From contig NZ_CP127385.1 of the NCBI RefSeq assembly GCF_030378205.1, forward strand, positions 1,776,001 to 1,840,000: 64,000 nucleotides of DNA. Direction: 5' to 3'. The notes beneath the pieces were generated by a model, which saw only the letters and a program-made list of their open reading frames with translations, had not been told where the DNA came from and made no database searches. The DNA comes from Bradyrhizobium sp. NP1 (lineage in GTDB: Bacteria; Pseudomonadota; Alphaproteobacteria; Rhizobiales; Xanthobacteraceae). Shown here one piece after another: positions 5,578-29,172 of the stretch (its first letter is position 1; each line of letters starts with the position of its first letter). A program made the translations under genes and the position numbers.

Positions 5578-6726
5578 CTAGTCGGTGGCTCTTTCGCGCG
5601 ACCAGCGATTGCCGAGCGCGAGGCCGTATTGGTAGAGGGCGTTGCCATGTTCCAGCTGCAGCCGCTCTGTGGATTGGAGCGCGACGTCAACATTCGCGCG
5701 CGCCAACTTCAATGCGCGTGCGAGAACCGAGGCCTCATAGGCCGCCTTGGCGGTTCCGCCCGCGGTGTGAGGCCGCACGACGAAAGCCGCATCGCCGGTC
5801 AAGAGGGTTCGACCGAACAGGGTTTTCGGTACTGTCACGTCGAGGATGGTCTGAAGGAAAGGATCGCGCGTTTCCGAGACCAGCGCGGCCATCTTCGGAT
5901 GGATCTCGCGCAAGGCGCGTGCTCTCAGCTTCGCGACGGCGTTCTCCGGTGCGGTGCCGCGCGGAAGCGAAGATCGATGGCGAATGCCGTTCTTGTCGGT
6001 CAGCACATTCGCCAGATCGGCTGCATCAACATGCACGTACCAGACCCAGTTGAGGCGCCGCGATCCTCTTGTGACGACGCCGTCGCTTCCCGGAATGAAA
6101 TAGGCCAGCATGTGGCCTCCGCAGCGGGCTTCCGAGAAGGTGAAGAGATTGTCGAAGAATGGCAGAAGGTCGGGAGGAACGTCGCTTTCGTCCAGCGTGC
6201 CTCTCCAGGCGACGTAGCCGGCATATCTCGCATCGATATCGGGAAGCATTTTGCGCCGTATTGCAGAGCCCGAACCGTCGGCAGCCAGGAACAGATCGCT
6301 TTCCACCACGGAGCCATCGCCAAGGGTCGCCAAGACCTTGGAGCCCGTCTGGGACACCTTCACGACCTCAGAGCCTGCCTGATAACATTGATCCGGAACA
6401 GCGGCCCGCAGTGCCGCGTGGATGGCTTCCCAGGACGTGAATTCCTGCGGCATATCCTGAAGGACGCCGTCTCCGCCGTCCGGGTTGAGATATCGCCGAC
6501 CGCGGCAGGACGTGAAGGGGAGAGGACCTGCACCGTTTTCCTCGAGCAGCCCGATCAATTCGTTTTGAACGACGATGCCGGCCCCTCGGGCCATCATCGG
6601 GCCTGGCACACGTTCGTGAACCTTTACGGTCGCACCGATCTTGCGAAGCGCGATCGCGTTGCAAAGTCCGGCAACCGATCCACCACTGATCGTAACCGTG
6701 AAGGCATGGTCGGCGTGCCAACTCAT
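5578..6726 (-). CDS. FAD-dependent aromatic monooxygenase (2,6-dihydroxypyridine 3-hydroxylase-like), paralogue 1
   Basis: A 382-residue class A flavoprotein hydroxylase. It has the FAD-binding fingerprint ISGGSVAGL at residues 13 to 21, the AADGSGSAIRR segment for NADPH and FAD contacts, and GDAAFVVRPHTAGGTAKAA near the C-terminus. The central YAGYVAWRG and NWVWYVHV segments match the dihydroxypyridine-hydroxylase subgroup more than salicylate or 4-hydroxybenzoate hydroxylases. It would insert one oxygen ortho to a ring hydroxyl. It is the last gene of a minus-strand run (MFS, paralogue 2, paralogue 1) with a 41-base gap to paralogue 2 and GGGAG before its ATG. Substrate identity is inferred. 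Confidence 0.85.
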   Translation of the reverse strand: MSWHADHAFTVTISGGSVAGLCNAIALRKIGATVKVHERVPGPMMARGAGIVVQNELIGLLEENGAGPLPFTSCRGRRYLNPDGGDGVLQDMPQEFTSWEAIHAALRAAVPDQCYQAGSEVVKVSQTGSKVLATLGDGSVVESDLFLAADGSGSAIRRKMLPDIDARYAGYVAWRGTLDESDVPPDLLPFFDNLFTFSEARCGGHMLAYFIPGSDGVVTRGSRRLNWVWYVHVDAADLANVLTDKNGIRHRSSLPRGTAPENAVAKLRARALREIHPKMAALVSETRDPFLQTILDVTVPKTLFGRTLLTGDAAFVVRPHTAGGTAKAAYEASVLARALKLARANVDVALQSTERLQLEHGNALYQYGLALGNRWSRERATD

Positions 6727-6767
6727 TCAGCTTCTCCCGATATTCACTGTTTCGACCAACGGAAGGC

Positions 6768-7877
6768 TCATGCGAGATGCGCGCTCAATTCGCGGCCTGA
6801 CGCGGCGATGGCTGCACCCGCCTTGACCCGTTCTTGTCTGTATTCCCGGAGCGCGTCGCCGAGCGACGCCGATGAGAGGTGCTTTCGCAGCGCAAGCGCG
6901 TCCGCCGCCGCCTTCGCAATGCCCATCCCCGTATGCGGTCGCACGACGAATGCCGCGTCTCCCACGAGGGCAACCCGTCGCGAGGTCATTTGCCGTGTTT
7001 CGTAGTCGAAGATCCCCTGCACGAACGGATGGGCCGTCGCTTCGATTGCGGCAGCGAAAGAACGCGGCAACAGCCGCCTGGCGTCGTCGACGAGCCGCTC
7101 GCGGGCTCGTTCGGGAACCGCGCCTGGAGGAAGTGAATAGGGGTGGATGCGGCCTTCGAGGTCCGTGAGTACCTCGTCCCGCGCGGCCGGTTCGACGGCC
7201 GGCCGATACCAGACCCAGTTGTATCTGCGATTTCCGGTTTCGGTTTCCCCGTTTGGTCCGGGCACCAGGAAACCGATCACGTGGGAATGCGGCATCCGGA
7301 AATATGCGAAGCGCTCGAGGAGCTCATCGGCTGCAAAGCCCGGCAAGGCATGTTCCGGAAGAAGGCCACGCCATCCGACATAGCCGGCGTACACATTGGC
7401 GGCCGTTGGGCCGTCGACCATGGCGCGTGCGACGGATGCTATTCCGTCAGCACCAATGACGACGTCGGCCAGCGCCTCGCTGCCGTCGGCGAAGCCAACA
7501 ACAATCTGATCGGCTTCTTCGCGAAGATGTTCGACCCTTCGGTCGAGCAGGTATGAGCCGTTCGCGATGTGCCGTCGAAAGACACGATAGATGGCGTCCC
7601 ACGATATCTGCATCTGAGGCGCCATCGTTTGATCGACGGTCGCCCCCATATCGCCGAACACGATGCGCTCCCGCGCAACTACGCCGACGCGCGCCACATG
7701 CTCGCATCCGGCGGCGCGCAGAATGGCAAATGTCTCGCGCTTACCCAGCAGGCCGGCCCCGCGCCCTTCGAGCCCATGGACCGATCGCTCGTAGACGGTG
7801 ACATCGTGTCCATCCTGGGCAAGCAGCGTAGCCGTGAACAGTCCCGCAAGAGAACCTCCGACGACCGCGATGCGCAT
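6768..7877 (-). CDS. FAD-dependent aromatic monooxygenase (2,6-dihydroxypyridine 3-hydroxylase-like), paralogue 2
   Basis: A 369-residue paralogue of the monooxygenases at 5578 and 10962. It starts MRIAVVGGSLAGL, the FAD fingerprint, which fixes the start at 7877 (GGAG upstream) although the frame is open to 8078. It carries IGADGIASVAR, YAGYVGWRG, RYNWVWYRP and GDAAFVVRPHTGMGIAKAA. These conserved positions indicate a functional flavin enzyme. It lies 46 bases after the MFS gene in the same transcript. The three paralogues may act on successive hydroxylation states of one ring or on related rings. Confidence 0.87.
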   Translation of the reverse strand: MRIAVVGGSLAGLFTATLLAQDGHDVTVYERSVHGLEGRGAGLLGKRETFAILRAAGCEHVARVGVVARERIVFGDMGATVDQTMAPQMQISWDAIYRVFRRHIANGSYLLDRRVEHLREEADQIVVGFADGSEALADVVIGADGIASVARAMVDGPTAANVYAGYVGWRGLLPEHALPGFAADELLERFAYFRMPHSHVIGFLVPGPNGETETGNRRYNWVWYRPAVEPAARDEVLTDLEGRIHPYSLPPGAVPERARERLVDDARRLLPRSFAAAIEATAHPFVQGIFDYETRQMTSRRVALVGDAAFVVRPHTGMGIAKAAADALALRKHLSSASLGDALREYRQERVKAGAAIAASGRELSAHLA

Positions 7878-7923
7878 GCGTGGCAATCTCCAAATGAGGC
7901 CGTTCTCAGAACAAGAGCGGGCG

Positions 7924-9126: not shown

Positions 9127-9176
9127 GGCTGCAATCCTCGTTCGTCGGCAGTTGCGCGGCTCGTATCGGGCCTCCC

Positions 9177-9205
9177 TTGACCTGCAGGCAGGATCATAGT
9201 TAATT
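9177..9205 (+). promoter_or_regulatory. Putative sigma70 promoter of the cupin gene
   Basis: TTGACC at 9177-9182 and TTAATT at 9200-9205 are separated by 17 bases. The -10 region lies inside operator copy 1, so a bound repressor would block it. Confidence 0.5.
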
Positions 9206-9220: not shown

Positions 9221-9235
9221 GCAAGGGAGTGGACG

Positions 9236-9640
9236 ATGAATAGCCCCTACGTCTGGCCGGCCGCGCCGGCACAGTGGCCACAGCCGCTGCGCGAGGAGTT
9301 CGTTGCGAAGCGCGGCAACGGTCGCGTGGGCAGCACGCTGGTTTCGCAGACTGACAAGGTCCGTGTCTGGCACCTTACGTTGCTGCCTGGCGAGCGTATT
9401 GGATTCCACACGCACGTTTTGGATTATTTCTGGACCGCGATGACGCCGGGCAGGGCGCGCTCGCATTATGGCGACGGCGATATCCGCGAAGTGAGCTATG
9501 CGGCGGGCGATACTAAGCATCACGAATACGGTCAGGGCGAATTCATGATCCACGACCTGGAGAACATCGGCGATACGCCGCTGGTCTTCGCCACGGTGGA
9601 ATTCCTGGAGAGCGCAAACAAGCCGCTCTTGCTCGACTGA
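9236..9640 (+). CDS. Cupin-fold protein
   Basis: A 134-residue small single-domain protein. The cupin metal motif is recognisable as LPGERIGFHTHVLDYFW, followed by KHHEYGQGEFMIHDLENIGD, which supplies further His residues and the second cupin motif. Cupins of this size serve as isomerases, dioxygenases or ring-fission helpers, so a catabolic role is plausible but not shown. GGGAG precedes the ATG. The gene is divergent from the MFS and monooxygenase operon, shares operator copy 1 with it, and converges on the LVIVD gene with 55 bases between. Confidence 0.75.
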   Translation: MNSPYVWPAAPAQWPQPLREEFVAKRGNGRVGSTLVSQTDKVRVWHLTLLPGERIGFHTHVLDYFWTAMTPGRARSHYGDGDIREVSYAAGDTKHHEYGQGEFMIHDLENIGDTPLVFATVEFLESANKPLLLD

Positions 9641-9695
9641 CGGGAAGCCCGGCCAGGGGCAGTGTGCGCACGGCTGGTCGGGGGGCGCCGCCTCG

Positions 9696-10958
9696 TCAGG
9701 TCATCTCGAGGATGTACAGGCCCGCATTGTAATCGGTCGCGTAGATCAGGCCGGAGGCATCGACAAAGACATCGCTCGACTGGACCACGTGAGGTCGATC
9801 GGGGCGATGATCCATCAGGCGCGCAGGCGTTGGCGGCACGAAGGCCGCGATCTCCTCGGGGCGGTAAGGGTTGGCGATGTCGAAGACCCGAATTCCCGCG
9901 TTCTGGTAGGTCGCGAAGACGAGGTTGGAATTGACGAAACTGCCGGGTCGATTTTCATGCAGGTTGTGTGGCCCGAAATGTCCGCCCTTCCTCGCGTAGT
10001 CAATCTCGCGCGGGACCGGGAAGGTCGCGATCGAGATCGGGTTGGATATCTCGCGGGCGTCCATCACCCAGATGTGCTTGAGCCCGTCCTCGAGATTGTC
10101 GAGCACGGCCTCGTCGAGCACCACGATGAGATCGCGGTCCGGGAGCGGCAGACAATTGTGGGTGCCTCCGCCGAAAGGCGGTGACCAGTTGCGGTGCACG
10201 ATCTTTCTCGGGGCGTGACGGTCCTTGACGTCGATCAGGACCATGCCGGCGTCACGCCAGGCCGCATAGGCGACGTCACCGTGCACGATCGCATGATGGA
10301 GGCCAAACCTGCGTCCAGAGGTCCAGCTCGGCCTCTCGCCGGCCGCGGCGTTCATTCCCTCCAGCCAGAACCTGCCTGCTTCCACAGGACGCGTGGGATC
10401 GCTCATGTCCACGGTCATGAAGATGTAGTCGGTGAAGCCGTCAAGCAGCGCAGACACATAGGCCCAGCGCCCTCCGGTGTACCAGATGCGATGTATCCCC
10501 CCGCCGTCGACGGGCATGAAGCCGATCTTGCGCGGCGCCTCGGGCCGCGAAATGTCGTAGACGGAGAGTCCGGCGGTCCAGTCCCGGCCTCCGGAGGCTT
10601 GTTGTGGCGCGGCGGTCCCGACCTTCTCGCCCAGTGAACCCGTGTAGTACGCCCTCTCATCCTGAAAGATGCTCGCGGCGAACATGTCCTTGGCTTCGAT
10701 CACCAGAAGAAGGTCGCCGTGGGTCTGCAGATGGATGTTCCAGGTGTTCGGCGGGGCTGCGACATAGGCAGCGGCGCGCGGGTTGGCGGGATCACGCACG
10801 TCGATCACGCTGAACCCTTTCGAGAACATGTGGCCGACATAGGCATGTCCCCGCTCGACCATGACCTGGACGCCATCGCTGCGACCGGCCTGATCGCTGT
10901 AGCCGACCAGGCGCATGTTGCGGGCAAATTCCGGTCGGATGTGTCGATCCGTCGCCAT
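9696..10958 (-). CDS. LVIVD-repeat beta-propeller protein with one or more His per blade
   Basis: A 420-residue protein made of repeated blades with the LVIVD-type pattern: GFSVIDVRDPANPR, GLSVYDISRPEAPRK, GMVLIDVKDRHAPRK and GIRVFDIANPYRPEE. No signal peptide is apparent, so it is probably cytoplasmic. Each blade brings a conserved-looking His near its inner strand: H76 and H80, H156, H221 and H222, H267, H331 and H334. That could form a central metal site as in carotenoid oxygenases or SBP56-type propellers, but this is inference. It starts three bases after monooxygenase paralogue 3, so the two are probably co-translated and may catalyse consecutive steps. The true function is unknown. Confidence 0.75.
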   Translation of the reverse strand: MATDRHIRPEFARNMRLVGYSDQAGRSDGVQVMVERGHAYVGHMFSKGFSVIDVRDPANPRAAAYVAAPPNTWNIHLQTHGDLLLVIEAKDMFAASIFQDERAYYTGSLGEKVGTAAPQQASGGRDWTAGLSVYDISRPEAPRKIGFMPVDGGGIHRIWYTGGRWAYVSALLDGFTDYIFMTVDMSDPTRPVEAGRFWLEGMNAAAGERPSWTSGRRFGLHHAIVHGDVAYAAWRDAGMVLIDVKDRHAPRKIVHRNWSPPFGGGTHNCLPLPDRDLIVVLDEAVLDNLEDGLKHIWVMDAREISNPISIATFPVPREIDYARKGGHFGPHNLHENRPGSFVNSNLVFATYQNAGIRVFDIANPYRPEEIAAFVPPTPARLMDHRPDRPHVVQSSDVFVDASGLIYATDYNAGLYILEMT

Positions 10959-10961: not shown

Positions 10962-12149
10962 TCACGGCCGCAGAAAATGGTCCGCCGCGGTGTTGCGCAG
11001 CAGATCGTCATAATCATGTGTGGCGGCGCCATCCGCTTGCGTCAGAAGAGCGCCGAGCTCGCGGCCTCGCGCGACGACGCGATCCCCGATCGGCTTGCGG
11101 ATGTCGTTGAACGTCCGCAAGCCGGCCGTGACGTCGTCGCCTGCGGCCGCAAGCGAGTCCGCGAGGCATTTTGCATCTGCCGCGCCTTTGGTGACCCCGA
11201 GGCCGACGTGCGGACGCCCGACGAAGGCGGCGTCTCCGATCAGCGCGACCCGGCCGAAAACCATGGCGGGAGAGGCGAGATCGTAGATCGGCGTGAAGAA
11301 GGCGGTCTTCACTGCGCGCAGGACTTGCAACATCGGTGCGCACATGAAGGCCTCGGCAGCTTCTCTCATCTCGCGCACGACGTCTGCCCTGACGAGCGGA
11401 GGCGGAATCGAGATCGCATGTGCGCGGCCGCTGTCGTCCGTGAGCATGTCGTCCAGACGCGCCTGGTCCGTGTTGCGATACCAGACGAAATTGTATCGAC
11501 GCTTTCCGGGCCGCAGATCGTTGTCCGGCCCCGCGATCGGATAGCCTATCACTTCGTGTCCGGGCGCGACGAAGAACGTGAACTTCTCGAATACGGCCGC
11601 GTGGGTTTCAGCGTCGAGATCGGCTTCGTCGACAAGCGCGCGCCATATCACATACCCGGCGTAGATCGGCTGAACCGCCGGGGCGAGCCGGTTCCGCGCT
11701 GCCGAGCGGAAGCCGTCGGCGGCAACCAGCAGATCGGCCCGTTCGGTGTGGCCGTTCTCGAAACGGACGGTGACGCCGTCGTCGTCCTGCGCGAAATCCA
11801 ACAGATTGTGATTGAGGTGATATGAGCCCTGCGGCTGTACGCTGCGGCAAAGATTCTGCAGGCGGTCCCACGAGGTGACGATTTGCGGATGGTGGTGATG
11901 TCCGATCACACGGCTTTCGCGGTCGAACAGCACGCGATCTTCGACATAAACGCCGAGATCTGCGATCCCGGCGCCGCTTTCGACCAGAATGTCCTGCAAT
12001 TCCCCGTGGCTGACGATGCCGGCGCCGCGCCCCTTCAGTTCGACGTCGGAACGCTCGAACACGTCGACCGACCATCCGGCCTTTCGCAGCAAGGCGGCCG
12101 CAAACAAGCCGGAAATCGAACCTCCGACGACGACGGCTCTTTTGCCCAT
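10962..12149 (-). CDS. FAD-dependent aromatic monooxygenase (2,6-dihydroxypyridine 3-hydroxylase-like), paralogue 3
   Basis: A 395-residue class A flavoprotein hydroxylase. MGKRAVVVGGSISGLFAAALLRKAG is the FAD-binding beta-alpha-beta unit, VAADGFRSAARN the second motif, and GDAAFVGRPHVGLGVTKGAADAK the C-terminal FAD contact. YAGYVIWRA and RYNFVWYRN place it with paralogues 1 and 2. GGGAGCGAC precedes the ATG. It is the first gene downstream of promoter and operator copy 2 and heads a two-gene unit with the LVIVD protein. Its separate promoter suggests that it acts at a distinct step, or on a distinct intermediate, from the other two paralogues. Confidence 0.87.
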   Translation of the reverse strand: MGKRAVVVGGSISGLFAAALLRKAGWSVDVFERSDVELKGRGAGIVSHGELQDILVESGAGIADLGVYVEDRVLFDRESRVIGHHHHPQIVTSWDRLQNLCRSVQPQGSYHLNHNLLDFAQDDDGVTVRFENGHTERADLLVAADGFRSAARNRLAPAVQPIYAGYVIWRALVDEADLDAETHAAVFEKFTFFVAPGHEVIGYPIAGPDNDLRPGKRRYNFVWYRNTDQARLDDMLTDDSGRAHAISIPPPLVRADVVREMREAAEAFMCAPMLQVLRAVKTAFFTPIYDLASPAMVFGRVALIGDAAFVGRPHVGLGVTKGAADAKCLADSLAAAGDDVTAGLRTFNDIRKPIGDRVVARGRELGALLTQADGAATHDYDDLLRNTAADHFLRP

Positions 12150-13225: not shown

Positions 13226-14473
13226 GTGACGTCCCATCCTCGTTCGGGCGGCTTGAGCCGCCGTTCCGCGTTCAAAGTCGCCACCGGCGCCATGCTTTTC
13301 TCCGCGCTTGGTCGGCCGGCCAGTGCGCAGCCGGCACCGATCAAGGTGGGTTTCCCGGTGCCGCTCACCGGCCCCTACGGCTCCGAGGCGGCAGACCAGG
13401 TGCGCTGCGCCCAACTCGCGATCGAGGACTTCAATCGGACGGGCGGGCTCAACGGACGGCCGGCAGAGCTGCTCGTCAGGGACGACAAGCTTAATCCCGC
13501 CGAGGCGGTCAGCCGGACCCTTGAGCTGATCGAGAAGGACAAGGTCGACATGGTCGTCGGATCGCTTTCGGGCGCGGTGCAGCTCGCGGTCAACGATGCC
13601 TGCAAGGCGAGGGGCATGATCTACAACGCACTCAGCCTTTCCGACCGGATCAACGAAGCCTCGGACTTCGGACCCACGACCTATCACGAGGGAATGGCGC
13701 CGCACTTCTCCGTCGGAGCGCTCGGGCGCTACGTGTTCGCGAACATGGGCAAGAAGGTGGCCTATCTTATCGCAGACTACGAGTTCGGATACGAGATGCG
13801 GCGCGCCTTCCAGACGATCGGCGACCAGATGGGCGCGCAGGTCGTTGCCGAAGTGAAGCATCCGCTCGGCGCGCAGGACTTTAGCAGCCTGTTTCCGAGG
13901 TTCATCAGCGCCAAGCCCGACATTCTGTGCGTCCTCAATTTCGGCCGCGATCAGCTCAACGCGCTGAAGCAGGCCAACGAGTTCGGCCTGAAGGATCGCA
14001 TGAAGATCGTCGTCGGCGCCCTTTCCAGCACCCAGAGGATCGCGGGCGGCGCCGACGCCTACGCCGACGTGGTCGGCGCTTCCAACTATTACTGGGCGGC
14101 CGAGGACATGTACGCCTCGTCAAAGGCCTTCAACGCTGCCTACGCCGCGAAATACAAGGGCGGCGTGCCGTCCGACTACGGCAGCTACGGCTACGGCGGC
14201 GTCCGCTCGATGTTGGAGCTCGCCAGAAAGGCGGGAGCCGTCGATCCTGCGGCGCTCTCTGCCGCCGTCGGAACGGGGTTCGACTTCGATCTCTACAAGG
14301 GCCCGCAAAGGATCAGGGCATGCGACCACCAGTCGGTGCAGTCGGTGTTCATCCTGAAATCAAAATCCGAAGCGCAGATGAAGACAACACACGACACGTT
14401 CGAAATCGTCTCCGTTGCCCAGGCAGACGAGGGCATGCTGCGGAGCTGTGCCGAACTCGGTCACAAGAGCTAG
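13226..14473 (+). CDS. ABC transporter substrate-binding protein, Liv/amide (ANF) type
   Basis: A 415-residue periplasmic binding protein. A twin-arginine-like leader (SRRSAFKVATGAMLFSALGRPASAQ) is followed by IKVGFPVPLTGPYGSEAADQ, the standard opening of type I (Leu/Ile/Val-like) binding proteins. GGAG is upstream of the start. The family binds branched-chain amino acids, amides, urea and many aromatic acids. Its position at the head of an operon with oxidative enzymes points to an aromatic or heteroaromatic ligand. The next gene starts nine bases after the stop. Confidence 0.9.
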   Translation: MTSHPRSGGLSRRSAFKVATGAMLFSALGRPASAQPAPIKVGFPVPLTGPYGSEAADQVRCAQLAIEDFNRTGGLNGRPAELLVRDDKLNPAEAVSRTLELIEKDKVDMVVGSLSGAVQLAVNDACKARGMIYNALSLSDRINEASDFGPTTYHEGMAPHFSVGALGRYVFANMGKKVAYLIADYEFGYEMRRAFQTIGDQMGAQVVAEVKHPLGAQDFSSLFPRFISAKPDILCVLNFGRDQLNALKQANEFGLKDRMKIVVGALSSTQRIAGGADAYADVVGASNYYWAAEDMYASSKAFNAAYAAKYKGGVPSDYGSYGYGGVRSMLELARKAGAVDPAALSAAVGTGFDFDLYKGPQRIRACDHQSVQSVFILKSKSEAQMKTTHDTFEIVSVAQADEGMLRSCAELGHKS

Positions 14474-19354: not shown

Positions 19355-19843
19355 ATGTCAAACCTTACCATCAATGAAAAAACGATATCAGTCAGCGCAT
19401 CGCCGGACACGCCGTTGCTCTACGTCCTGCGCGACGAGCTCGGCCTCAACGCCGCAAAGTACGGCTGCGGGCTTGGGCAATGTGGTGCGTGCACGGTGAT
19501 TGTCGATGGAGCCGCGGTGTTATCCTGCGTAACGCCCTTGGGTTTGTTGGAAGGGCGTCGCGTGACGACGCTTGAAGGTTTGGGCTCGGCGGACGCTCCC
19601 GGCCCCATGCAGCGGGCCTTTATCGCCGAGCAGGCCGCGCAGTGCGGATTTTGCATCCCCGGCGTGATGATGCGCGCCCAGGCGCTTCTGGATCGCAATC
19701 CCAACGCGACAGACGCCGCTATTCGCGCTGAACTCCAGCCGCATCTGTGCCGCTGCGGCACTCATATGCGCATACTCCGTGCGATCAGGCGCGCCTCTGA
19801 CGAGAGGAAAGCCAAGGCGGCCGATGCGAGGTCGCCGCAATGA
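19355..19843 (+). CDS. Molybdenum hydroxylase [2Fe-2S] subunit (IorA/NicA-like)
   Basis: A 162-residue protein with the two expected iron-sulfur domains. A plant-type cluster is in YGCGLGQCGACTVIVDGAAVLSC, and a second helical cluster is in CGFCIPG and CRCGTHM. This is the small subunit of two-subunit xanthine-oxidase-family enzymes such as isoquinoline 1-oxidoreductase, nicotinate dehydrogenase and periplasmic aldehyde dehydrogenase. It has no signal peptide and would travel with the Tat-exported large subunit. The stop overlaps the large-subunit start by four bases. Confidence 0.9.
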   Translation: MSNLTINEKTISVSASPDTPLLYVLRDELGLNAAKYGCGLGQCGACTVIVDGAAVLSCVTPLGLLEGRRVTTLEGLGSADAPGPMQRAFIAEQAAQCGFCIPGVMMRAQALLDRNPNATDAAIRAELQPHLCRCGTHMRILRAIRRASDERKAKAADARSPQ

Positions 19844-22071
19844 CGATCTCCATCTCGCGACGTGCGGTGCTGGCCGGTACTGGCGCTCTGATCGTCGCGT
19901 TTCAAATGCATGGCGCCTCGGCCCAAACCGAGACCGGCAAGGGCGACGGTCCGTCGAAGCGTGGCCTGCCGGGTAGTCTGGATGACACCCCGAGGATTGA
20001 TTCCTGGATTCGTGTCGAAGCCTCGGGCGCCGTCACGATTCTGACCGGAAAGGCCGAACTTGGGCAGGGTCTCAAGACCGCGTTACTGCAGGTTGCCGCC
20101 GAAGAGCTCAAGGTCCCCATGGAAAAGCTCTCCCTGGTGACGGCTGACACGGCGCGCACAGCTGACGAAGGATATACGGCGGCCAGTCATTCGATGCAGG
20201 ATTCCGGGACCGCGATCCGAAATGCGGCCGCCCAGGCCCGCGACCTTCTCGTCGCGGAAGCGGCCCGGCGGCTCGGCCTCGCCGAGGCGGACCTCAAAGC
20301 GGCGAACGGAGCCGTTCTCGGTCCGAATGGCGCTCGGATCGCATATGGCGCGTTGGTACGCGACCAACTGCTTTCCGTCGACGCGAAGCCAACTTCCCGT
20401 TTGACCCTTCCGTCCGATTTCACAGTCATGGGCCGCCCGCTGCAGCGGGTTGATATCCCCGCCAAGGTGACGGGCGGCACGGCATATGTCCAGGACCTTC
20501 GCCCCGAAGGCAAGTTGCACGGTCGCGTGGTGCGACCACCGAGTTACGGCGCGACGCTCCGCGACATCGACATTGCGTCCATAGAGGGCATGCGAGGAGT
20601 CGTGAAGGTGGTGCGCGACGGCAATTTCGTTGGCGTGCTCGCAGAAACCGAATGGGCGGCGATCCAGGGCATGCGGGCGCTCGCGGCAAGTACCACCTGG
20701 ATTGAAAAGGAAGCCTTGCCCGATAGCGCGATGCTTGCTTCGGCCCTCATGAGCCTGCCATCCAAGGATACGACGATCCATGATACAGGAGTTTCCGGCA
20801 CGCCCGGTACCGTTGTCGAGGGTACCTTCAGCAGGCCCTATCTGACGCACGGCTCGATAGGTCCGTCCTGCGCGGTGGCCGAACTCCGCGACGGCATGCT
20901 CACTATCTCGACGCATACGCAAGGCGTCTTTCCTCTCCGCCGGGCCATCGCCGGAATGCTGCGGATGCCGAGCGAAAAGGTCCGTTGTATCCACGTCGAG
21001 GGAGCAGGCTGCTATGGGCAAAACGGCGCCGACGACGCGGCTGCGGACGCGGCGATGCTCGCTGTCGCCATGCCCGGAAGGCCCATCCGCGTCCAACTGA
21101 TGCGCGAGCAGGAGCATGCGTGGGATCCGTTTGGTCCGGGCATGGTCGTGAAGCTTCGCGCATCAGTCGGGGTGAGCGGCGCGATTGCGGACTGGCATCA
21201 CGAAGTCTGGAGCCAGTCTCACATGATGCGGCCCGGCCCGCCGGGCACGCTGCTTGCCGCCCGCCTGAAGGCCGACGCAGCTGTGCCGGCGCCGCCCGTC
21301 GAACTCGCACAGCCGGAAGGCGGCGGGGATCGCAACGCCATCCCGCTTTATTCGATTCCTAACGCCAGGGTGATCAGCCATTTCCTTCGCGACATGCCGT
21401 TGCGCGGCTCGTCCATGCGTTCGCTCGGCGGCTATCTGAACGTGTTGGCGATCGAGAGCACCATGGACGATCTGGCCCGCGCTTCCGGTCAGGATGCGGT
21501 AGCGTTCCGGCTTCGTCATCTCGATGACCCGCGCGCCCGAGAGGTGGTGGAGACTGCCGCCTCCCGGTTCGGCTGGTCTCCGCATGTCGAGGGACCGTCC
21601 GGCGCCGGCCGTGGTTTCGCCTTTGCTCGCTACAAGAACCTCGAAGCCTGGTGTGCGGTAGCTGTGGAGGTCGTGGTCGAGCGCGAGACAGGCCGGGTTC
21701 GCGTGAAGCGCATGGTCGCGGCAGTCGATACCGGTCAGGTCGTCAATCCCGACGGGATCCGTAACCAGGTCGAGGGCGGGCTGCTGCAGGCGCTGAGCTG
21801 GACCCTGTTCGAGCGGGTGACGTTCGACCGAACCCGCGTCACGTCGGTGGATTGGTCGGCATATCCGATCCTTCGTTTTGGCGACGTTCCCGATTCCGTC
21901 GAGGTCCACATCATCGATCGCCCGAACGACGGTTTCTATGGCGTTGCCGAAGCCGCCCAGGGCCCATCCGGTGCGGCGCTCGCCAATGCGATCCGCGACG
22001 CGACGGGTTTGCGCTTGCACGAGCTTCCGTTCACCGCTTCGCGAATCAGGGCGGCGACAGGATCGCGATGA
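19840..22071 (+). CDS. Molybdenum hydroxylase, molybdopterin-binding subunit (IorB/NicB-like)
   Basis: A 743-residue large subunit. A Tat-type leader SRRAVLAGTGALIVAFQ starts at residue 6, indicating export to the periplasm. The body has the IorB arrangement: GKAELGQGLKTALLQ for cofactor contacts, GQNGADDAAADAAMLA in the middle, and the C-terminal GVAEAAQGPSGAALANA with the probable catalytic Glu. The family hydroxylates a carbon next to a ring nitrogen or oxidises aldehydes, taking oxygen from water. In this setting an N-heterocycle is the better guess. Molybdenum-cofactor maturation genes are not seen in the window. Confidence 0.9.
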   Translation: MTISISRRAVLAGTGALIVAFQMHGASAQTETGKGDGPSKRGLPGSLDDTPRIDSWIRVEASGAVTILTGKAELGQGLKTALLQVAAEELKVPMEKLSLVTADTARTADEGYTAASHSMQDSGTAIRNAAAQARDLLVAEAARRLGLAEADLKAANGAVLGPNGARIAYGALVRDQLLSVDAKPTSRLTLPSDFTVMGRPLQRVDIPAKVTGGTAYVQDLRPEGKLHGRVVRPPSYGATLRDIDIASIEGMRGVVKVVRDGNFVGVLAETEWAAIQGMRALAASTTWIEKEALPDSAMLASALMSLPSKDTTIHDTGVSGTPGTVVEGTFSRPYLTHGSIGPSCAVAELRDGMLTISTHTQGVFPLRRAIAGMLRMPSEKVRCIHVEGAGCYGQNGADDAAADAAMLAVAMPGRPIRVQLMREQEHAWDPFGPGMVVKLRASVGVSGAIADWHHEVWSQSHMMRPGPPGTLLAARLKADAAVPAPPVELAQPEGGGDRNAIPLYSIPNARVISHFLRDMPLRGSSMRSLGGYLNVLAIESTMDDLARASGQDAVAFRLRHLDDPRAREVVETAASRFGWSPHVEGPSGAGRGFAFARYKNLEAWCAVAVEVVVERETGRVRVKRMVAAVDTGQVVNPDGIRNQVEGGLLQALSWTLFERVTFDRTRVTSVDWSAYPILRFGDVPDSVEVHIIDRPNDGFYGVAEAAQGPSGAALANAIRDATGLRLHELPFTASRIRAATGSR

Positions 22072-22144: not shown

Positions 22145-23278
22145 ATGGTTGACGCTACGCACGAGGTGACCGCTCGTCTCGGTCTGCGCGATCTGCTGCG
22201 TCATCCTGCGCTTCACGCGCTTCTCGCCGTCGCCATTGCCGCAACGGCGTGGATCGTCGCGGGGCAGTGGGACAGGTGGACGGGCGCCTTCCGCTTCCAG
22301 CGCACCGACGACGCCTACATGGCGGGCGACATCACCCCACTGGCGGCCAAGGTGTCGGGATATATCGTCCGCGTTTCGGTGCAGGATTATCAGCGCGTCA
22401 ATCGCGGTGATCCAATCGTCGAGATCGATCCGACGGATTACCAAGCGCAGTTCGATCTTGCCTCCGCCAACCTGGCGGCCGCCAGGGCTGCCGAAGCGCA
22501 GATCGCGTTCCGTCGGGAAACGCAACGGACGCTGATCGAGCAGGCGCAAGCGACCATTCGGGCCAGCCAGGCCGAGCTGGACCGGGCCTCCGCCGAGGCC
22601 AGGCGTCAGCGTAACCTGCTTCAGACGCAGATCGCCGGCACCGAACAACGCGTCGAGCAGGCCGACGCCGATGCCCTTAAGGCCGAGGCGACGCTGGCCC
22701 TCAACCGGGCTCAACTCGAGCAGCAAAAGGTGCTGCTGTCCGAGCTCGATGTCCAGGAGAAGCAGCTCGCCGCTCAAACGAAGGCCGCCGAGGCACAGGC
22801 GACGCTGGCACACAACAACCTCATCGACACGCGGATCGTGTCGCCGGCGGACGGCATGGTCGGAGCCCGGCAGGTGCGCCCCGGTCAGTTCGTAAACGTC
22901 GGTAGCCAGGTGGTTACCGTCGTGCCGTTGCCGCATCTGTGGGTGGTAGCAAATTTCAAGGAGACGCAAATGACGCGCGTGCGCGCCGCGAATCCCGCGC
23001 GCGTCACGGTGGACGCCTTTCCCTCGCTCGTCTTGACGGGACGGGTGGACAGTTGGTCCCCCGGCACTGGGGCGACTTTCGCGCTTCTCCCTCCGGACAA
23101 TGCAACCGGTAACTTCACCAAGGTCGTGCAGCGCGTGCCGGTGAAGATTGTGTTGGACCCAAATCCTGCGCTCGGTACGCTGGTCCGACCGGGGATGTCG
23201 GTTGTTGCGACGATCGACACAGGTTCGAGTGCCGATGCGCTTTTCGCGCCCCTCGCGGCCGGCGAGACCGCGCCGTGA
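22145..23278 (+). CDS. HlyD-family membrane fusion protein (EmrA-like)
   Basis: A 377-residue periplasmic adaptor. It has one membrane anchor (residues 24 to 42), the EmrA-type segment QRTDDAYMAGDITPLAAKVSGYI, a long coiled coil with Ala/Gln repeats, and the returning lipoyl half (NLIDTRIVSPADGMVGARQVRPGQFV). The start at 22145 follows 73 bases after the molybdenum subunit; the earlier open frame is a shadow. It pairs with the EmrB-type protein that begins on its stop codon. Confidence 0.88.
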   Translation: MVDATHEVTARLGLRDLLRHPALHALLAVAIAATAWIVAGQWDRWTGAFRFQRTDDAYMAGDITPLAAKVSGYIVRVSVQDYQRVNRGDPIVEIDPTDYQAQFDLASANLAAARAAEAQIAFRRETQRTLIEQAQATIRASQAELDRASAEARRQRNLLQTQIAGTEQRVEQADADALKAEATLALNRAQLEQQKVLLSELDVQEKQLAAQTKAAEAQATLAHNNLIDTRIVSPADGMVGARQVRPGQFVNVGSQVVTVVPLPHLWVVANFKETQMTRVRAANPARVTVDAFPSLVLTGRVDSWSPGTGATFALLPPDNATGNFTKVVQRVPVKIVLDPNPALGTLVRPGMSVVATIDTGSSADALFAPLAAGETAP

Positions 23279-25625: not shown

Positions 25626-25712
25626 GTGGAGAAGCCCTCGATGGTGTCGATACCAGACACCTTATGGCGCATCGCCTGCTGTGGCACGGGCCGAATTGGC
25701 CGAATCGTCCGA

Positions 25713-26603
25713 TTAGTCGAGGGAGCCGGCAGATCGCGCTTCCTCAAGGACATAAGCGCGGCGGCGGAAGATACCCGGCGAGAGTCCCAGGTGTTGTCGG
25801 ACAAATCTGGTGAAATGCGTCAGTTCGGCGAAGCCCAATTCTGCTGCGACTTCCTGCAATCTGGACGTTCGATAGACCAGCGCTTCGGTGACGAGGCTCA
25901 TGCGAGCCCAATCAAGGTACTGCTGCGGCGATGCACCGACGGTTCGCTTGAATTGCTCGAAGAAGCGCGATCGAGACATCCCGACTTCGCAGGCGATCGC
26001 CTCCATGCTCGGATTTTCGTGGGCTCGATCCCGAAGGATGCGGACGGCGCGGCGGATCCGAGCATCGGTCATGCGACGCTCACCGCGGTGCTCGCTCGAC
26101 GCATCTGCGTCCGTGACCGCTCGGAGGAAATCGGCAACGAGCGTCTCGTAGATTCCGTCCGCTTCGACGGCAGCCCCTGCTACAGCGTGCGCAAGCCTCC
26201 TTGCCTTCCGCCTCACTTCGTCGGTGTTCGGCACCAGCTGGCTGGAAAAGATTGCGTCGGCGTGGGCCGACGTGGTCGGTAAGATCCGGCTCAGCCAATC
26301 CGGCTTGATCAGAAGCGCCAGGACCTGCGAGGGACCGTTCGCACTCGGCTCCTTTTTGTGCGGCTGCCAAGGATTGAACGCGATCGTCACCTCCTCGCTG
26401 AGGTGGAGCGGCCGCTTTTCCGAGATGAAGAGCGGGTCGGGGCCCTCCAGCCGGAACAGCAGGTTGTACTCGGCGTGAACATGGGGGACCAGCGCGCGGG
26501 CTATTGGACCGACTGTCACCCGTCCGAAAGATCCCTGAATGATGCCGGCGCCATAAGACTCGCCGTCTCTGATGATCCGATGTGGTCCAAGGCGATGAGG
26601 CAT
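25713..26603 (-). CDS. AraC-family transcriptional regulator
   Basis: A 296-residue regulator. The N-terminal half is an AraC-type effector-binding cupin (HVHAEYNLLFRLEG). The last 100 residues hold the two helix-turn-helix motifs (NPSMEAIACEVGMSRSRFFEQFKRTVGASPQQYL and LQEVAAELGFAELTHFTRFVRQHLGLSPGIFRRR). It diverges from the dihydroxypseudooxynicotine-hydrolase-like gene across 135 bases and probably activates that gene and the hydrolase behind itself. Confidence 0.88.
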   Translation of the reverse strand: MPHRLGPHRIIRDGESYGAGIIQGSFGRVTVGPIARALVPHVHAEYNLLFRLEGPDPLFISEKRPLHLSEEVTIAFNPWQPHKKEPSANGPSQVLALLIKPDWLSRILPTTSAHADAIFSSQLVPNTDEVRRKARRLAHAVAGAAVEADGIYETLVADFLRAVTDADASSEHRGERRMTDARIRRAVRILRDRAHENPSMEAIACEVGMSRSRFFEQFKRTVGASPQQYLDWARMSLVTEALVYRTSRLQEVAAELGFAELTHFTRFVRQHLGLSPGIFRRRAYVLEEARSAGSLD

Positions 26604-26738
26604 CCGCGCGGCCTGTTCAATTTCCGGACGATTCGATCAGTCGTGGGACGGTCGGACGTCCCGAGTCTGATCGGCCCCTCCTATACCAGCATGGAAGCGT
26701 CCTGGCACCGAACCTGCCCGAAGGAGGAAGCCGAAACA

Positions 26739-27893
26739 ATGTTCTTCTATTTTCCCGGTAATTACATGTGGTCGTTGGGAGTCAACCGCTGCCTCGCGGC
26801 CGGCGGTCACTTTGGCGAGATCAATTGGGCGCTGCAAGGGCTTCAGGCGGCCGCCAAGGCGCCTCCTCAGGGCGACTCCGAAGCCTGGTATGCAGCATGG
26901 CTGAAGCTGGCGCATCAAACCGCAGCGATCGGAGAAGAAGCCGAAAGCAAGGGGCACCGCATTACCGCCTCCTCGCAATTCTACCGTGCCGCTCAATACT
27001 ATCAGTGGGCGGAGGCGTTCCTCGATCCGGACGACGAGCGCGCTTCGCCAACTTACGGGCTTCACCTCAAGAGCTTCGATCGCTTCGCCTTGCATGCGCC
27101 TTCCCGTGTGGAGGTCGTAGACGTGCCCTTCGGGTCGACCACCCTGTCGGCCTACTTCGTTCCGGCGCGCGGAACGACCGACCGTAGTCCCGCTGTCATT
27201 CTCTGGGACGGCCTGGACGGCACCAAGGAAGAGATGTTTCCGATGGCGTCTCATCTGGCCGCGCGCGGCATTTCGTGTCTCGGAATCGACATCACAGGCC
27301 AGGGTGCCTCCCTGCGCTTGAACGGTCTGAAGGCACGGCACGATACCGAAGTCTGCGCCACGGCCGCCTACGAGTGGCTCAGCGCGAGGCCCGAAGTAGA
27401 TGCATCTCGGGTGGGATTGATCGGTGCGAGCATGGGCGGCTATTCCGCCCCGCGCGCGGTCGCATACGAGAAAAGGATAAAGGCGTGCGTCGCATGGGGG
27501 GCGATCTACGATTATCACGATGTTTGGGTTCGACGCCTCAACTCGATCGGCAGGGGCGCGACCCTGGATTACGGGCAGGCGCTGGGCACGACGGGCAAGC
27601 ACCTGCTCAACATCGTCGGGGCCACGGATTTCGACGAGGCGCTGAAGCTGCTCGAGCCTTTCCATCTTCGCGAAGCGGCGCTGCTGATCTCCTGCGACAT
27701 TCTCCTGGTTCACGGCGAGCATGATCGGCAGACCAGCCTCGAGAACGCGAAGGCGCTGTTCGCCGCGATCGGATCGAAAAACAAGCAAATGCGCGTTTAC
27801 ACCGCGGAGGAGGGCGGCGCTGCCCACGTGCAGCTCGATCGCCAGGAGCCGGCGGCGAGTCTGATCGCCGACTGGTTCACCGATCACCTTTGA
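26739..27893 (+). CDS. 2,6-dihydroxypseudooxynicotine hydrolase-like C-C hydrolase
   Basis: A 384-residue alpha/beta hydrolase with a helical N-terminal domain of about 120 residues, the architecture of the nicotine-pathway enzyme that splits 2,6-dihydroxypseudooxynicotine into 2,6-dihydroxypyridine. The triad is Ser231 in GASMGG, Asp329 in HGEHDRQ and His363. The WDGLDGTKEEM segment supplies Glu at the position expected for the extra catalytic Glu. AAGGAGG precedes the ATG at 26739. Its product type would be a substrate for the dihydroxypyridine-hydroxylase-like enzymes at 5578, 6768 and 10962. Family is fairly clear; the natural substrate is inferred. Confidence 0.78.
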   Translation: MFFYFPGNYMWSLGVNRCLAAGGHFGEINWALQGLQAAAKAPPQGDSEAWYAAWLKLAHQTAAIGEEAESKGHRITASSQFYRAAQYYQWAEAFLDPDDERASPTYGLHLKSFDRFALHAPSRVEVVDVPFGSTTLSAYFVPARGTTDRSPAVILWDGLDGTKEEMFPMASHLAARGISCLGIDITGQGASLRLNGLKARHDTEVCATAAYEWLSARPEVDASRVGLIGASMGGYSAPRAVAYEKRIKACVAWGAIYDYHDVWVRRLNSIGRGATLDYGQALGTTGKHLLNIVGATDFDEALKLLEPFHLREAALLISCDILLVHGEHDRQTSLENAKALFAAIGSKNKQMRVYTAEEGGAAHVQLDRQEPAASLIADWFTDHL

Positions 27894-27930
27894 CTCGCTG
27901 ATGGCGTAACTCGAGCGACGGGAGGGTGAC

Positions 27931-29172
27931 GTGGGTTCCCTGCAACTGCGTGTCGTCCTCCTTTGCTCGGTGGTGGCATTCCTGGACGGGTTCGACATGC
28001 AATCGGTCGGGCCCGCCGCGAAGGAAATTGCGACCGATCTGAATGTTCTGACCGTCCATTTCGGTTGGCTGTCCAGCGCCTTTCAGATCGGCTTTCTTAC
28101 CGGCTCGATGGTGTTCGGACCTCTCGGCGACCGGCTGGGTCGAAAGTGGCCGCTGGTCGGCACGACGGCGCTGTTTGCCGTTTGCTCCCTGGCGATGGCC
28201 GTTACGAGCTCTTTCGATCTGTTGTTGTTGTTTCGGCTGTTTGCCGGCATCGGTCTTGGAGGTGCCACGCCGATTTATGTGAGCCTCGCCTCCGATCAGG
28301 CTCCGCCCGACAAACGGGCGCGCGTCGTCACTCTGATGTCGGTGGCTGTGCCGCTCGGCGGCATGGCCGCCGGCCTCGTCAGCTCGGTGCTGATTCCCAT
28401 GTTCGGTTGGAGAGCGGTGTTCTTTCTCGGCGGGATCGTGCCGCTCGCGGCCACGGCGGTCATAGCCGTCGCCCTGCCCAAGGAGGACGTGAAGCGGCCA
28501 CCTGCGGCAGGACAACGGATGGGCACGACGACAACGGTCCAGCAACTTTTCGTCGCCGAAGAGCGAGTAAAGACGACGTGGTTGTGGCTCACCTCGCTGA
28601 TGGTGTGGTCTGCGCTTGTCGTGAATGCTTTCTGGTCGCCGACCCTCATGCAGCAGGCGGGCTGGTCGGTTGCAACAGCCGGTCAGATGACCGGCGTCTA
28701 CAATCTCGGCGGGGTTTTGGGAACGATAGCTATCGGAGCCGCGCCCGCGCGGCTGCGGTCCGATCAGGTACTGATGATCGCGCTCGCGGTCGGCGGCATA
28801 TTGATTGCGCTCGTCGGCCTTTCTCTGGGCAGCAAGCCGCTTATGACAGGCGTAGTGTTCCTCTCCGGATTTTGCACGTCTGCGGCGGGGTATGCCTTGC
28901 TGGCGTTTTCCGCGACCGTCTATTCGGCCTTCATGCGTGCGACCGGCGTCGGCTGGGCGCTCGGATTTGGTCGCATCGGCGCGGTTCTGGCGCCGCCGGC
29001 AGCGGGGTTTTTGGTAGCGGGTGCTTTCCCCGTCGAACAGATGTATCTCTTCTTCGGCGTACCGTTCGTTCTGGCAAGCGTCTTCGTCAGTCTCCTGTGG
29101 CGAGAGATGGAACGACGTCCGAGCCATACGAGGACGACAACGGGCGCGAATCCTGAGAATGTTGCGCCGTGA
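27931..29172 (+). CDS. MFS transporter, aromatic acid:H+ symporter-like
   Basis: A 413-residue carrier with about twelve membrane segments. DGFDMQSVGPAAKEIATDL resembles the DGxD motif of the first helix of PcaK/BenK-type aromatic-acid symporters. The loop 2/3 motif is FGPLGDRLGRKWPL. The start is GTG with GGGAGG six bases upstream. It lies 37 bases after the C-C hydrolase gene, so it is probably in the same transcript and imports that gene's substrate or a related acid. It converges with dinB, with 73 bases between. Confidence 0.85.
   Translation: MGSLQLRVVLLCSVVAFLDGFDMQSVGPAAKEIATDLNVLTVHFGWLSSAFQIGFLTGSMVFGPLGDRLGRKWPLVGTTALFAVCSLAMAVTSSFDLLLLFRLFAGIGLGGATPIYVSLASDQAPPDKRARVVTLMSVAVPLGGMAAGLVSSVLIPMFGWRAVFFLGGIVPLAATAVIAVALPKEDVKRPPAAGQRMGTTTTVQQLFVAEERVKTTWLWLTSLMVWSALVVNAFWSPTLMQQAGWSVATAGQMTGVYNLGGVLGTIAIGAAPARLRSDQVLMIALAVGGILIALVGLSLGSKPLMTGVVFLSGFCTSAAGYALLAFSATVYSAFMRATGVGWALGFGRIGAVLAPPAAGFLVAGAFPVEQMYLFFGVPFVLASVFVSLLWREMERRPSHTRTTTGANPENVAP

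What the first reader, a model, noticed from the sequence alone, without database searches (positions are those of the whole stretch)
5578..29172. Candidate undescribed catabolic system for a hydroxylated N-heteroaromatic or aryl ketone
In 24 kb there are three dihydroxypyridine-hydroxylase-like monooxygenases, a periplasmic molybdenum hydroxylase with its own cytochrome c, a Liv-type importer, an EmrAB-type exporter, a cupin, a His-rich propeller and, next door, a dihydroxypseudooxynicotine-hydrolase-like C-C hydrolase. In Arthrobacter the last enzyme type produces the substrate of the first. The set is known piecewise, but I know of no described pathway with this combination. Substrate and order of steps are inferred.
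Basis: partly seen in the sequence, partly recalled or inferred. Interest (0 to 1): 0.78.

Follow-up and report, generated by a model that had tools for sequence, protein, structure and literature searches.

The report
Conserved ring-degrading gene cluster in Bradyrhizobium
A soil bacterium related to legume symbionts carries a conserved, mix-and-match set of genes that probably imports, oxidises and breaks open a hydroxylated nitrogen-containing (or polyhydroxylated) aromatic ring; the compound is still unknown, and two likely ring-processing enzymes have no established role in such pathways.

Summary
The gene inventory is real. The three dihydroxypyridine-hydroxylase-type (PF22607) monooxygenases are the only three in this 7.7-Mb genome and lie within 6.6 kb. 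Block 2990-24873 is one modular catabolic cluster: MhqDO, LysR, MO1, MO2, MFS, cupin, beta-propeller, MO3, TetR, Liv importer, cytochrome c/FeS/Mo dehydrogenase, EmrAB. Overlapping subsets recur in Bradyrhizobium and on plasmids of eight other proteobacterial genera. The C-C hydrolase module (24870-29172) is separate: its hydrolase was found in none of 264 other Bradyrhizobium genomes and beside no fetched MO-containing relative, so "hydrolase feeds monooxygenase" is not supported. New clues: the cupin's nearest solved relative is AzcA, a triazine-forming enzyme (38% identity); the propeller has the fold of a propeller phosphotriesterase and directly follows an MO gene in 9 of 36 loci. Most likely function: oxidative degradation of a hydroxylated N-heteroaromatic. 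A phloroglucinol-type polyphenol is not excluded, since three relatives carry genes that fit phloroglucinol ring opening. Substrate undetermined. Verdict: real, conserved, not described in the papers searched; new variant of a known kind.

The parts
2990..3619 (-). MhqD-like carboxylesterase
   Evidence: NF047577 MhqD 134 bits, below its cut-off of 325; 66% ortholog near MO2/MO3/cupin in L120
3616..4665 (-). MhqO-like ring-cleaving VOC dioxygenase (true start probably further in)
   Evidence: 288 bits to 3oaj MhqO from residue 37; 78% in L120
4572..5570 (+). LysR regulator
   Evidence: PF00126, PF03466; 72% in L120
5578..6726 (-). MO1, DHPH-type flavin monooxygenase
   Evidence: PF22607; 2vou 182 bits
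6768..7877 (-). MO2, DHPH-type flavin monooxygenase (ORF runs to 8078; start ATG 7877 likely)
   Evidence: PF22607; 2vou 137 bits; 53% in L120 and L121
7924..9126 (-). MFS1 transporter
   Evidence: PF07690; 86-89% in 8 of 20 Bradyrhizobium cupin regions
9236..9640 (+). AzcA-like single-domain cupin
9696..10958 (-). LVIVD seven-bladed beta-propeller, candidate metallohydrolase
10962..12149 (-). MO3, DHPH-type flavin monooxygenase, same strand and 3 bp from the propeller gene
   Evidence: PF22607; 2vou 162 bits; 73% in L043
12222..12995 (-). TetR regulator
   Evidence: PF00440; 41-48% in 11 of 20 Bradyrhizobium cupin regions
13226..14473 (+). Liv-type substrate-binding protein, twin-Arg N-terminus
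   Evidence: PF13458; 56% in L078 and L110
14483..15367 (+). LivH permease
   Evidence: PF02653; 61-62% in L078 and L110
15364..16362 (+). LivM permease (start ATG 15364 likely)
   Evidence: PF02653; 53-58% in L078 and L110
16362..17111 (+). LivG ATPase (start approximate)
   Evidence: PF00005, PF12399; 48-52% in L078 and L110
17111..17815 (+). LivF ATPase (start ATG 17111 likely)
   Evidence: PF00005; 60-65% in L078 and L110
17870..19348 (+). cytochrome c subunit of the Mo dehydrogenase, three CxxCH motifs
   Evidence: PF00034; 61-65% in 8 of 20 Bradyrhizobium regions, 42-46% in L076, L081, L084
19355..19843 (+). 2Fe-2S subunit
   Evidence: PF01799, PF00111; 76-82% in 9 of 20 Bradyrhizobium regions
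19840..22071 (+). MoCo catalytic subunit, twin-Arg N-terminus
   Evidence: PF20256, PF02738; best PDB 8gy3 aldehyde dehydrogenase 158 bits; 74-77% in 9 of 20 Bradyrhizobium regions
22145..23278 (+). EmrA-type adaptor (ORF starts at 21878; start ATG 22145 likely)
   Evidence: TIGR00998 240 bits, below its cut-off of 391; 75% in L123
23275..24873 (+). EmrB-type exporter
   Evidence: TIGR00711 174 bits, below its cut-off of 230; 71% in L123
24870..29172 (.). separate neighbouring module, not part of the cluster: alpha/beta hydrolase 24870-25625(-), AraC 25713-26603(-), DHPON-hydrolase-like 26739-27893(+), aromatic-acid MFS 27931-29172(+)
   Evidence: AraC, hydrolase and alpha/beta hydrolase together in Variovorax L087; hydrolase in 1 of 265 Bradyrhizobium genomes at E<=1e-80

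Best explanation
2990-24873 is one modular catabolic cluster for a hydroxylated N-heteroaromatic compound. Inferred order: the periplasmic cytochrome-c-linked Mo dehydrogenase hydroxylates the ring (or oxidises an aldehyde substituent); the Liv importer or MFS1 brings the product in; DHPH-type flavin monooxygenases (MO3, with MO1 and MO2) add hydroxyls next to existing ones, giving an unstable tri-oxygenated ring; the AzcA-like cupin and the propeller, a candidate metal-dependent hydrolase, rearrange and open it. MhqDO and EmrAB would remove quinoid by-products; TetR and LysR regulate. Shown: gene content, families, folds and conserved co-localisation of subsets. Inferred: every substrate, reaction and step order, metal binding by the propeller, and the detoxification role.
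For: The three PF22607 proteins of the genome all sit here and DHPH is the best solved relative of each. PF22607 (12 of 297 genomes) and the cupin (11 of 297 at E<=1e-20) co-occur in 3 genomes and lie within about 1.4 kb of each other in all three; hypergeometric P 0.007, or 0.048 without the window's genome. In 11 of 20 fetched Bradyrhizobium cupin regions an MO, a TetR and an ActP gene accompany the cupin; 9 of these also hold FeS and MoCo, 8 also cytc and MFS1 at 86-89%. Plasmids of Bosea, Rhizobium, Agrobacterium, Phyllobacterium and Methylobacterium hold MO, cupin and Liv genes, three of them with a Mo hydroxylase; Paraburkholderia, Burkholderia and Variovorax plasmids hold MO and Mo dehydrogenase genes with a VOC gene beside the MO in place of the cupin. 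The cupin is closest to AzcA. Methylobacterium pairs MO and cupin with uraH/uraD and a Cox-type Mo hydroxylase. A RidA-family gene lies near the cupin in L080 and L115.
Against: The MoCo subunit is closest to an aldehyde dehydrogenase, not to nicotinate or quinoline dehydrogenases. Three relatives carry a cyclase and a HisD-like gene, one of them also a BKACE, that fit phloroglucinol opening. The cupin occurs without a DHPH-type MO in 9 of 20 Bradyrhizobium regions (one is a 3.3-kb contig) and in 9 of the 11 other fetched regions (in L112 the cupin is 1 kb from the contig start). The propeller follows an MO in only 9 of 36 loci and was not seen in any fetched MO-cupin cluster outside the window. 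The relatives' ActP, ACMSD-like and ALDH genes gave no hit in the 64-kb window. No activity data exist.
Confidence: 0.5

Rival explanations
1. The same cluster degrades a polyhydroxylated carbocycle (phloroglucinol- or resorcinol-type plant polyphenol): the Mo enzyme oxidises an aldehyde, the monooxygenases hydroxylate the phenol, and MhqO or the cupin cleaves the ring.
For: L110 holds a BKACE above the cut-off of the 3,5-dioxohexanoate model (525 against 430 bits) and a PF04199 cyclase; L114 and L115 hold 67-74% identical cyclases and HisD-like genes. Enzymes of the cyclase and BKACE families open phloroglucinol in Clostridium, and that paper reports its gene cluster in a Bradyrhizobium sp. 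(PMC10470551: abstract and passages). MhqO belongs to the hydroquinone ring-cleavage enzymes. MoCo is closest to an aldehyde dehydrogenase.
Against: DHPH, not the FdeE-like protein, is the nearest characterised MO relative compared. AzcA-like cupin. The cyclase, BKACE, HisD-like and SDR genes gave no hit in the window.
Confidence: 0.27
2. The DNA holds two or three unrelated catabolic pathways side by side (MO1/MO2/MFS1; MO3/propeller/TetR; Liv with the Mo dehydrogenase) that happen to be neighbours and do not form one pathway.
For: MO3, propeller and TetR form their own unit in B. erythrophlei L043 (73, 78 and 79% identity) and MO3-propeller pairs stand without the other parts in the other MO-linked propeller loci. 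The Liv genes match L078/L110, the Mo dehydrogenase other clusters.
Against: MO, cupin, TetR, Mo dehydrogenase and MFS1 recur together in Bradyrhizobium; MO3-type and MO1-type genes lie together in L081, and MO3-type and MO2-type genes in L075, L120 and L121.
Confidence: 0.15
3. Aryl-ketone pathway: the DHPON-hydrolase-like C-C hydrolase releases the hydroxylated ring that the monooxygenases then hydroxylate, as in Arthrobacter nicotine catabolism.
For: Physical neighbourhood; the hydrolase's best solved relative is 2jbw DHPON hydrolase, 65 bits.
Against: No conserved linkage: 1 of 265 Bradyrhizobium genomes has it, none of the 20 cupin regions; its module recurs without an MO in Variovorax.
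Confidence: 0.06

Closest known systems
Nicotine lower pathway of Arthrobacter/Paenarthrobacter plasmid pAO1 (DHPH, PKC cyclase, kdh Mo enzyme, omega-amidase)
   Same: DHPH-type monooxygenase together with a Mo hydroxylase; a cyclase-family gene lies directly before the DHPH gene (PMC6214936 passages and section 8; PMC10494377 passages)
   Different: No PKC or amidase hit in the window; here a cytochrome-c-linked Mo enzyme, Liv importer, cupin and propeller; MO identity only 33-35%
fde/ifc flavonoid catabolism clusters (Herbaspirillum naringenin, Variovorax isoflavones)
   Same: Similar part list: FAD monooxygenase, VOC protein, cupins, DHPON-hydrolase-like gene (PMC11069340 passages and sections 15 and 16)
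   Different: The FdeE-like protein of the fde-like cluster L091 is 24-26% identical to MO1-3 and far apart in the tree; no Mo dehydrogenase among the genes named in the passages seen; the window's DHPON-hydrolase-like gene is not part of the conserved cluster. FdeC and IfcD sequences were not compared
Methylobacterium sp. NMS14P plasmid cluster (uraH, uraD, MO, cupin, Cox-type Mo hydroxylase, Liv)
   Same: Liv genes 48-61%, cupin 63%, MO 46%, TetR 41% identical
   Different: Cox-type instead of cytochrome-c-type Mo hydroxylase; uraH/uraD absent from the window's hits; no propeller hit; itself uncharacterised as far as the calls show
Propeller phosphotriesterase of Sphingobium sp. TCM1 (5hrm)
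   Same: Seven-bladed fold, 21% identity over 353 aligned residues
   Different: Sequence profile matches only the LVIVD repeats; metal ligands not compared
AzcA (9u8n, 9u8o), triazine-forming cupin
   Different: Known here only from its PDB title; the window's cupin lies in a catabolic setting

Membership tests
2,6-dihydroxypyridine 3-hydroxylase (DHPH) for MO1-3 | PF22607 domain and DHPH as best solved relative | tested here: met
2,6-dihydroxypyridine 3-hydroxylase (DHPH) for MO1-3 | groups with authentic DHPH in a tree | tested here: inconclusive
   MO1 is in a 4-row set with DHPH (97/96) but long branches meet; MO2 and MO3 fall in other sets
2,6-dihydroxypyridine 3-hydroxylase (DHPH) for MO1-3 | hydroxylates 2,6-dihydroxypyridine | not testable with these tools
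   needs enzyme assay
pAO1-type dihydroxypyridine pathway | cyclase-family (PKC) gene beside the monooxygenase gene | tested here: not met
   no hit of PKC or of the L110/L114/L115 cyclases in the window; four PF04199 places elsewhere in the genome
fde/ifc flavonoid cluster | FdeE-type monooxygenase | tested here: not met
   24-26% identity to the FdeE-like protein of L091 and separate placement; authentic FdeE and IfcA sequences were not at hand
fde/ifc flavonoid cluster | FdeC/IfcB-type VOC dioxygenase and IfcD-type cupins | not tested
   those sequences were not compared with the window's VOC (MhqO-like) and cupin
Sb-PTE-like propeller metallohydrolase | seven-bladed propeller fold with this enzyme as best match | tested here: met
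   other propellers reach nearly the same Z (30.0) at 8-13% identity
Sb-PTE-like propeller metallohydrolase | binuclear metal site with the same ligands | not tested
   model coordinates were not at hand; invariant H221, H222, H267 and H331 are only suggestive
AzcA-type cupin | AzcA as nearest solved structure, ahead of the rest | tested here: met
AzcA-type cupin | forms a 1,3,5-triazine carboxylate | not testable with these tools
   needs enzyme assay
Periplasmic cytochrome-c-linked Mo dehydrogenase | MoCo subunit with twin-Arg signal, 2Fe-2S subunit and multiheme cytochrome c in one operon | tested here: met
   (the twin-Arg motif was read by eye)
DHPON hydrolase (26739-27893) | conserved linkage to the monooxygenase cluster | tested here: not met
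   only 65 bits to 2jbw
MhqD/MhqO hydroquinone pair (2990-4665) | MhqO as nearest solved relative and MhqD-type esterase next to it | tested here: met
   3oaj 288 bits; MhqD model 134 bits, below its cut-off of 325

The most novel reading that the evidence does not exclude
MO3, the propeller and the AzcA-like cupin form a new ring-opening module: a DHPH-type monooxygenase makes an unstable tri-oxygenated N-heterocycle, which an LVIVD beta-propeller metallohydrolase and an AzcA-like cupin then rearrange and hydrolyse, in place of the cyclase-family hydrolases found beside such monooxygenases elsewhere. It would give a first catabolic function to a propeller family with thousands of homologues for which the paper searches found none.
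Probability: 0.22. Interest if true: 0.75.

Novelty: new variant of a known kind. Interest (0 to 1): 0.5.

Why it matters
It outlines a recurrent rhizobial and burkholderial catabolic cluster for which ten paper searches gave no description. It links two families without known catabolic role (the LVIVD propeller, 5915 homologues among the 7999 candidates scored; the 134-aa cupin, 2834) to flavin-monooxygenase ring chemistry. It gives a short, testable list of genes and substrate classes for plant-associated bacteria, and it separates the C-C hydrolase module from the pathway.

Tried and rejected
Nicotinate-dehydrogenase reading of the Mo enzyme: the best solved relative is 8gy3 aldehyde dehydrogenase, 158 bits; the nicotinate dehydrogenase medium subunit has 88 bits. 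Not decisive.

Flavonoid (fde/ifc) reading: suggested by matching part lists; weakened by FdeE-like identity and tree.

'Cyclase beside MO equals trihydroxypyridine hydrolase' in L110 and L114: rejected as the sole reading, because the L110 BKACE passes the cut-off of the 3,5-dioxohexanoate model and these cyclases are only 30-32% identical to PKC.

Propeller conserved with the whole cluster: rejected. Among the 37 propeller loci, window-gene hits over 80 bits were MO3 (10 loci, one of them, L045, partial), TetR (3), one cupin (L014), fes with moco at 28-51% (L018, L039), one fes alone (L043), one LysR (L045) and scattered low-identity Liv hits. A point the other way, not followed up: two pairs of propeller and cupin homologues (P0007/P0196 and P0013/P0227) lie on contigs of equal length, so they may share contigs.

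Horizontal island by composition: no G+C difference (0.628 for the cluster, 0.624 and 0.623 for the stretches after it).

Papers: ten searches were answered. Their listings showed no description of this gene combination, of a catabolic role of an LVIVD propeller, or of AzcA. Only openly licensed papers are held. Seven papers were opened: PMC11069340 (passages, sections 15 and 16), PMC11303751 (passages), PMC8552027 (passages), PMC10494377 (passages), PMC6214936 (passages, section 8), PMC9304392 (passages), PMC10470551 (abstract, passages). None was read whole.

Controls against the reading: in the tree the labels 'propeller-linked' and 'window' are no more clustered than in shuffles (79 and 88 of 500 as low), and the set of MO3 with all propeller-linked rows has weak support (82/68); only MO3 with L043 is firm (100/100).

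Rows dropped: omits hits of 80 bits or less; and 110 of 60 bits or less; alignment A1 uses 27 of 37 propeller loci; A2 uses 38 of the 120 listed cupin homologues; one search fetched 20 of the 33 places that one search lists outside the own genome; one search fetched the 11 places at E<=1e-20 other than the window's. In some searches clusters are single-linkage and ORFs mechanical. In one search only 7 candidates per genome were scored.

Full report
WHAT IS THERE. The window lies in a single-contig genome of 7.7 Mb. The genome has 24 same-genus relatives. One same-genus handle (G350) has a contig of exactly the length of Bradyrhizobium erythrophlei GAS478, and the closest named cupin homologue is from Bradyrhizobium ganzhouense (84%), so the host is taken to be Bradyrhizobium. 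They add an MhqD/MhqO pair and a LysR gene upstream (2990-5570). Several ORFs are over-long; probable starts are in the parts list.

IS IT MORE THAN CHANCE? The DHPH-type domain PF22607 occurs three times in the genome; these are MO1, MO2 and MO3, within 6.6 kb. It is found in 12 of 297 sampled genomes of the order, 14 hits in all, and in none of 14 control genomes. The cupin is similarly rare: 15 of 297 genomes at E<=1e-8, of which 11 pass 1e-20. Three genomes have both, where 0.44 are expected (hypergeometric P 0.007; 0.048 without the window's genome). In all three the two genes lie within about 1.4 kb: next to each other in G168, with a TetR gene between in G234, with the propeller gene between in the window.

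A named-genome scan with the Mo subunit did not complete, so the propeller was used. Cluster relatives were then found by tblastn of MO1, MO3, cupin and C-C hydrolase on named plasmids. Comparing the listed rows, an MO lies within 0.3 kb of the cupin in at least 10 of the 35 cupin-bearing plasmid records; only 30 of 351 MO records were listed. Examples: Bosea sp. F3-2 (soybean rhizosphere; TetR, SBP, amidohydrolase, aldehyde dehydrogenase, LivHMGF, MO, cupin, ActP, a second MO of the MO2 type and MFS1 at 60%); Rhizobium ruizarguesonis (TetR, SBP, amidohydrolase, aldehyde dehydrogenase, Liv, MO, cupin, ActP, then VOC, OYE, cytc, FeS, MoCo); Agrobacterium; Methylobacterium sp. NMS14P from coffee root (uraH twice, uraD, MO, cupin, TetR, Cox-type Mo hydroxylase, Liv); Rhodococcus (MO, cupin, amidohydrolase, OYE, VOC); Phyllobacterium (MoCo-FeS-cytc, TetR, Liv, MO, cupin, and MhqDO about 9 kb on). 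In three beta-proteobacteria a VOC gene stands beside the MO instead of the cupin: Paraburkholderia largidicola (TetR, VOC, MO3-type, ActP, amidohydrolase, DsbA-type, MO1-type, MFS1, OYE, cytc, FeS, MoCo), Burkholderia pyrrocinia and Variovorax sp. PDNC026. The amidohydrolase of R. ruizarguesonis has ACMSD as best solved relative (198 bits).

In Bradyrhizobium the cupin is in 31 of 265 genomes. Of 20 regions fetched, 11 hold MO, TetR and ActP with the cupin; 9 of these also FeS and MoCo (74-82% identity), 8 also cytc and MFS1 (86-89%); one has EmrAB, one MhqDO with LysR, two MO2. The other 9 have no MO; one of them is a 3.3-kb contig. Of the 11 other fetched regions, two hold an MO (L110, L114).

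So the window is a mosaic. Its Mo dehydrogenase, MFS1, EmrAB and MhqDO are those of the Bradyrhizobium clusters. Its Liv importer resembles that of G234 (L110, 52-65%) and of Methylobacterium (48-61%), while Liv genes of the Rhizobium-type clusters are 24-41% identical. Its TetR, MO3 and propeller match a separate unit in B. erythrophlei (79, 73 and 78%; L043).

MONOOXYGENASE RELATIONSHIPS. An Arthrobacter nicotine-plasmid protein (L090) is DHPH (909 bits to 2vou); it is 33-35% identical to MO1-3, while the FdeE-like protein of L091 is 24-26%. In a 45-row tree MO1 is in a supported set with DHPH (97/96), MO2 with Bosea and Bradyrhizobium MO2 proteins (100/99), MO3 with L043 (100/100); the wider set of MO3 with the propeller-linked rows is weak (82/68). 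Long branches, notably FdeE and DHPH, make deep placements unsure.

THE C-C HYDROLASE MODULE. 24870-29172 (alpha/beta hydrolase, AraC, DHPON-hydrolase-like, MFS) has a counterpart on a Variovorax plasmid with AraC 43%, hydrolase 52% and alpha/beta hydrolase 47%, without a DHPH-type MO in the 25 kb fetched. In 265 Bradyrhizobium genomes the hydrolase was found in the window's genome alone at E<=1e-80 (which scored 7 candidates per genome). It is treated as an unrelated neighbour. One caution: in the fde-like cluster L091 a hydrolase of this family does lie in the same gene run as an FAD oxidoreductase, so such pairings exist in other pathways.

SUBSTRATE. For an N-heteroaromatic: DHPH affinity, the AzcA-like cupin, uraH/uraD in Methylobacterium, RidA near the cupin in Phaeobacter (L080) and in L115, and the ACMSD-like enzyme of a relative. 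In the nicotine pathway a cyclase-family enzyme encoded next to DHPH is proposed to hydrolyse 2,3,6-trihydroxypyridine (PMC6214936: passages and section 8); in Aspergillus nicotinate catabolism an alkene reductase acts on the same intermediate (PMC9304392: passages), which parallels the OYE genes of several relatives. Against: cyclase and HisD-like genes in L110, L114 and L115, with a BKACE in L110, fit phloroglucinol opening (PMC10470551: abstract and passages; the HisD-like role is my guess), MhqO acts on hydroquinones by family, and the Mo subunit is nearest an aldehyde dehydrogenase. I put the N-heteroaromatic reading at about 0.5 and the polyphenol reading at about 0.27.

VERDICT. Real, non-random and conserved; not described in the papers searched; built of known enzyme families plus two families for which no catabolic function was found. 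New variant of a known kind; interest 0.5.

Noticed in passing
window 33313-44426: Second aromatic gene set: LysR, S15-type hydrolase, AMP ligase, intradiol catechol-type dioxygenase (40140-41048), MFS and a salicylate-hydroxylase-like FAD monooxygenase (43233-44426).
   Followed up: partly
window 52026-53252: Old yellow enzyme (alkene reductase), 47.6% identical to one beside MO and cupin in Bosea L075.
   Followed up: no
own genome C1:5810807-5811169 (L109): Second copy of the cupin (58%) with a 49% TetR and Liv genes but no DHPH-type monooxygenase: perhaps a sister catabolic locus.
   Followed up: partly
L078 (Methylobacterium sp. NMS14P plasmid, coffee root): Two uraH, uraD, DHPH-type monooxygenase, AzcA-like cupin, Cox-type Mo hydroxylase and Liv in one run: possibly a methylxanthine or purine pathway.
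   Followed up: no
L091 and L092 (Burkholderia anthina and Paraburkholderia hospita plasmids): fde-like flavonoid clusters on plasmids: L091 is annotated with Rieske protein, FAD oxidoreductase, VOC, cupin, FAH and a hydrolase of the DHPON-hydrolase kind; L092 is unannotated and has FdeE-like and cyclase matches.
   Followed up: no
L110 5667-7578: BKACE above the cut-off of the 3,5-dioxohexanoate model next to a PF04199 cyclase, in a cluster with a Mo hydroxylase and a flavin monooxygenase.
   Followed up: partly
P0007/P0196 and P0013/P0227: Propeller and cupin homologues reported on contigs of equal length (26238 and 7071 bases): they may share contigs, which would be a second case of the window's propeller-cupin linkage.
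   Followed up: no
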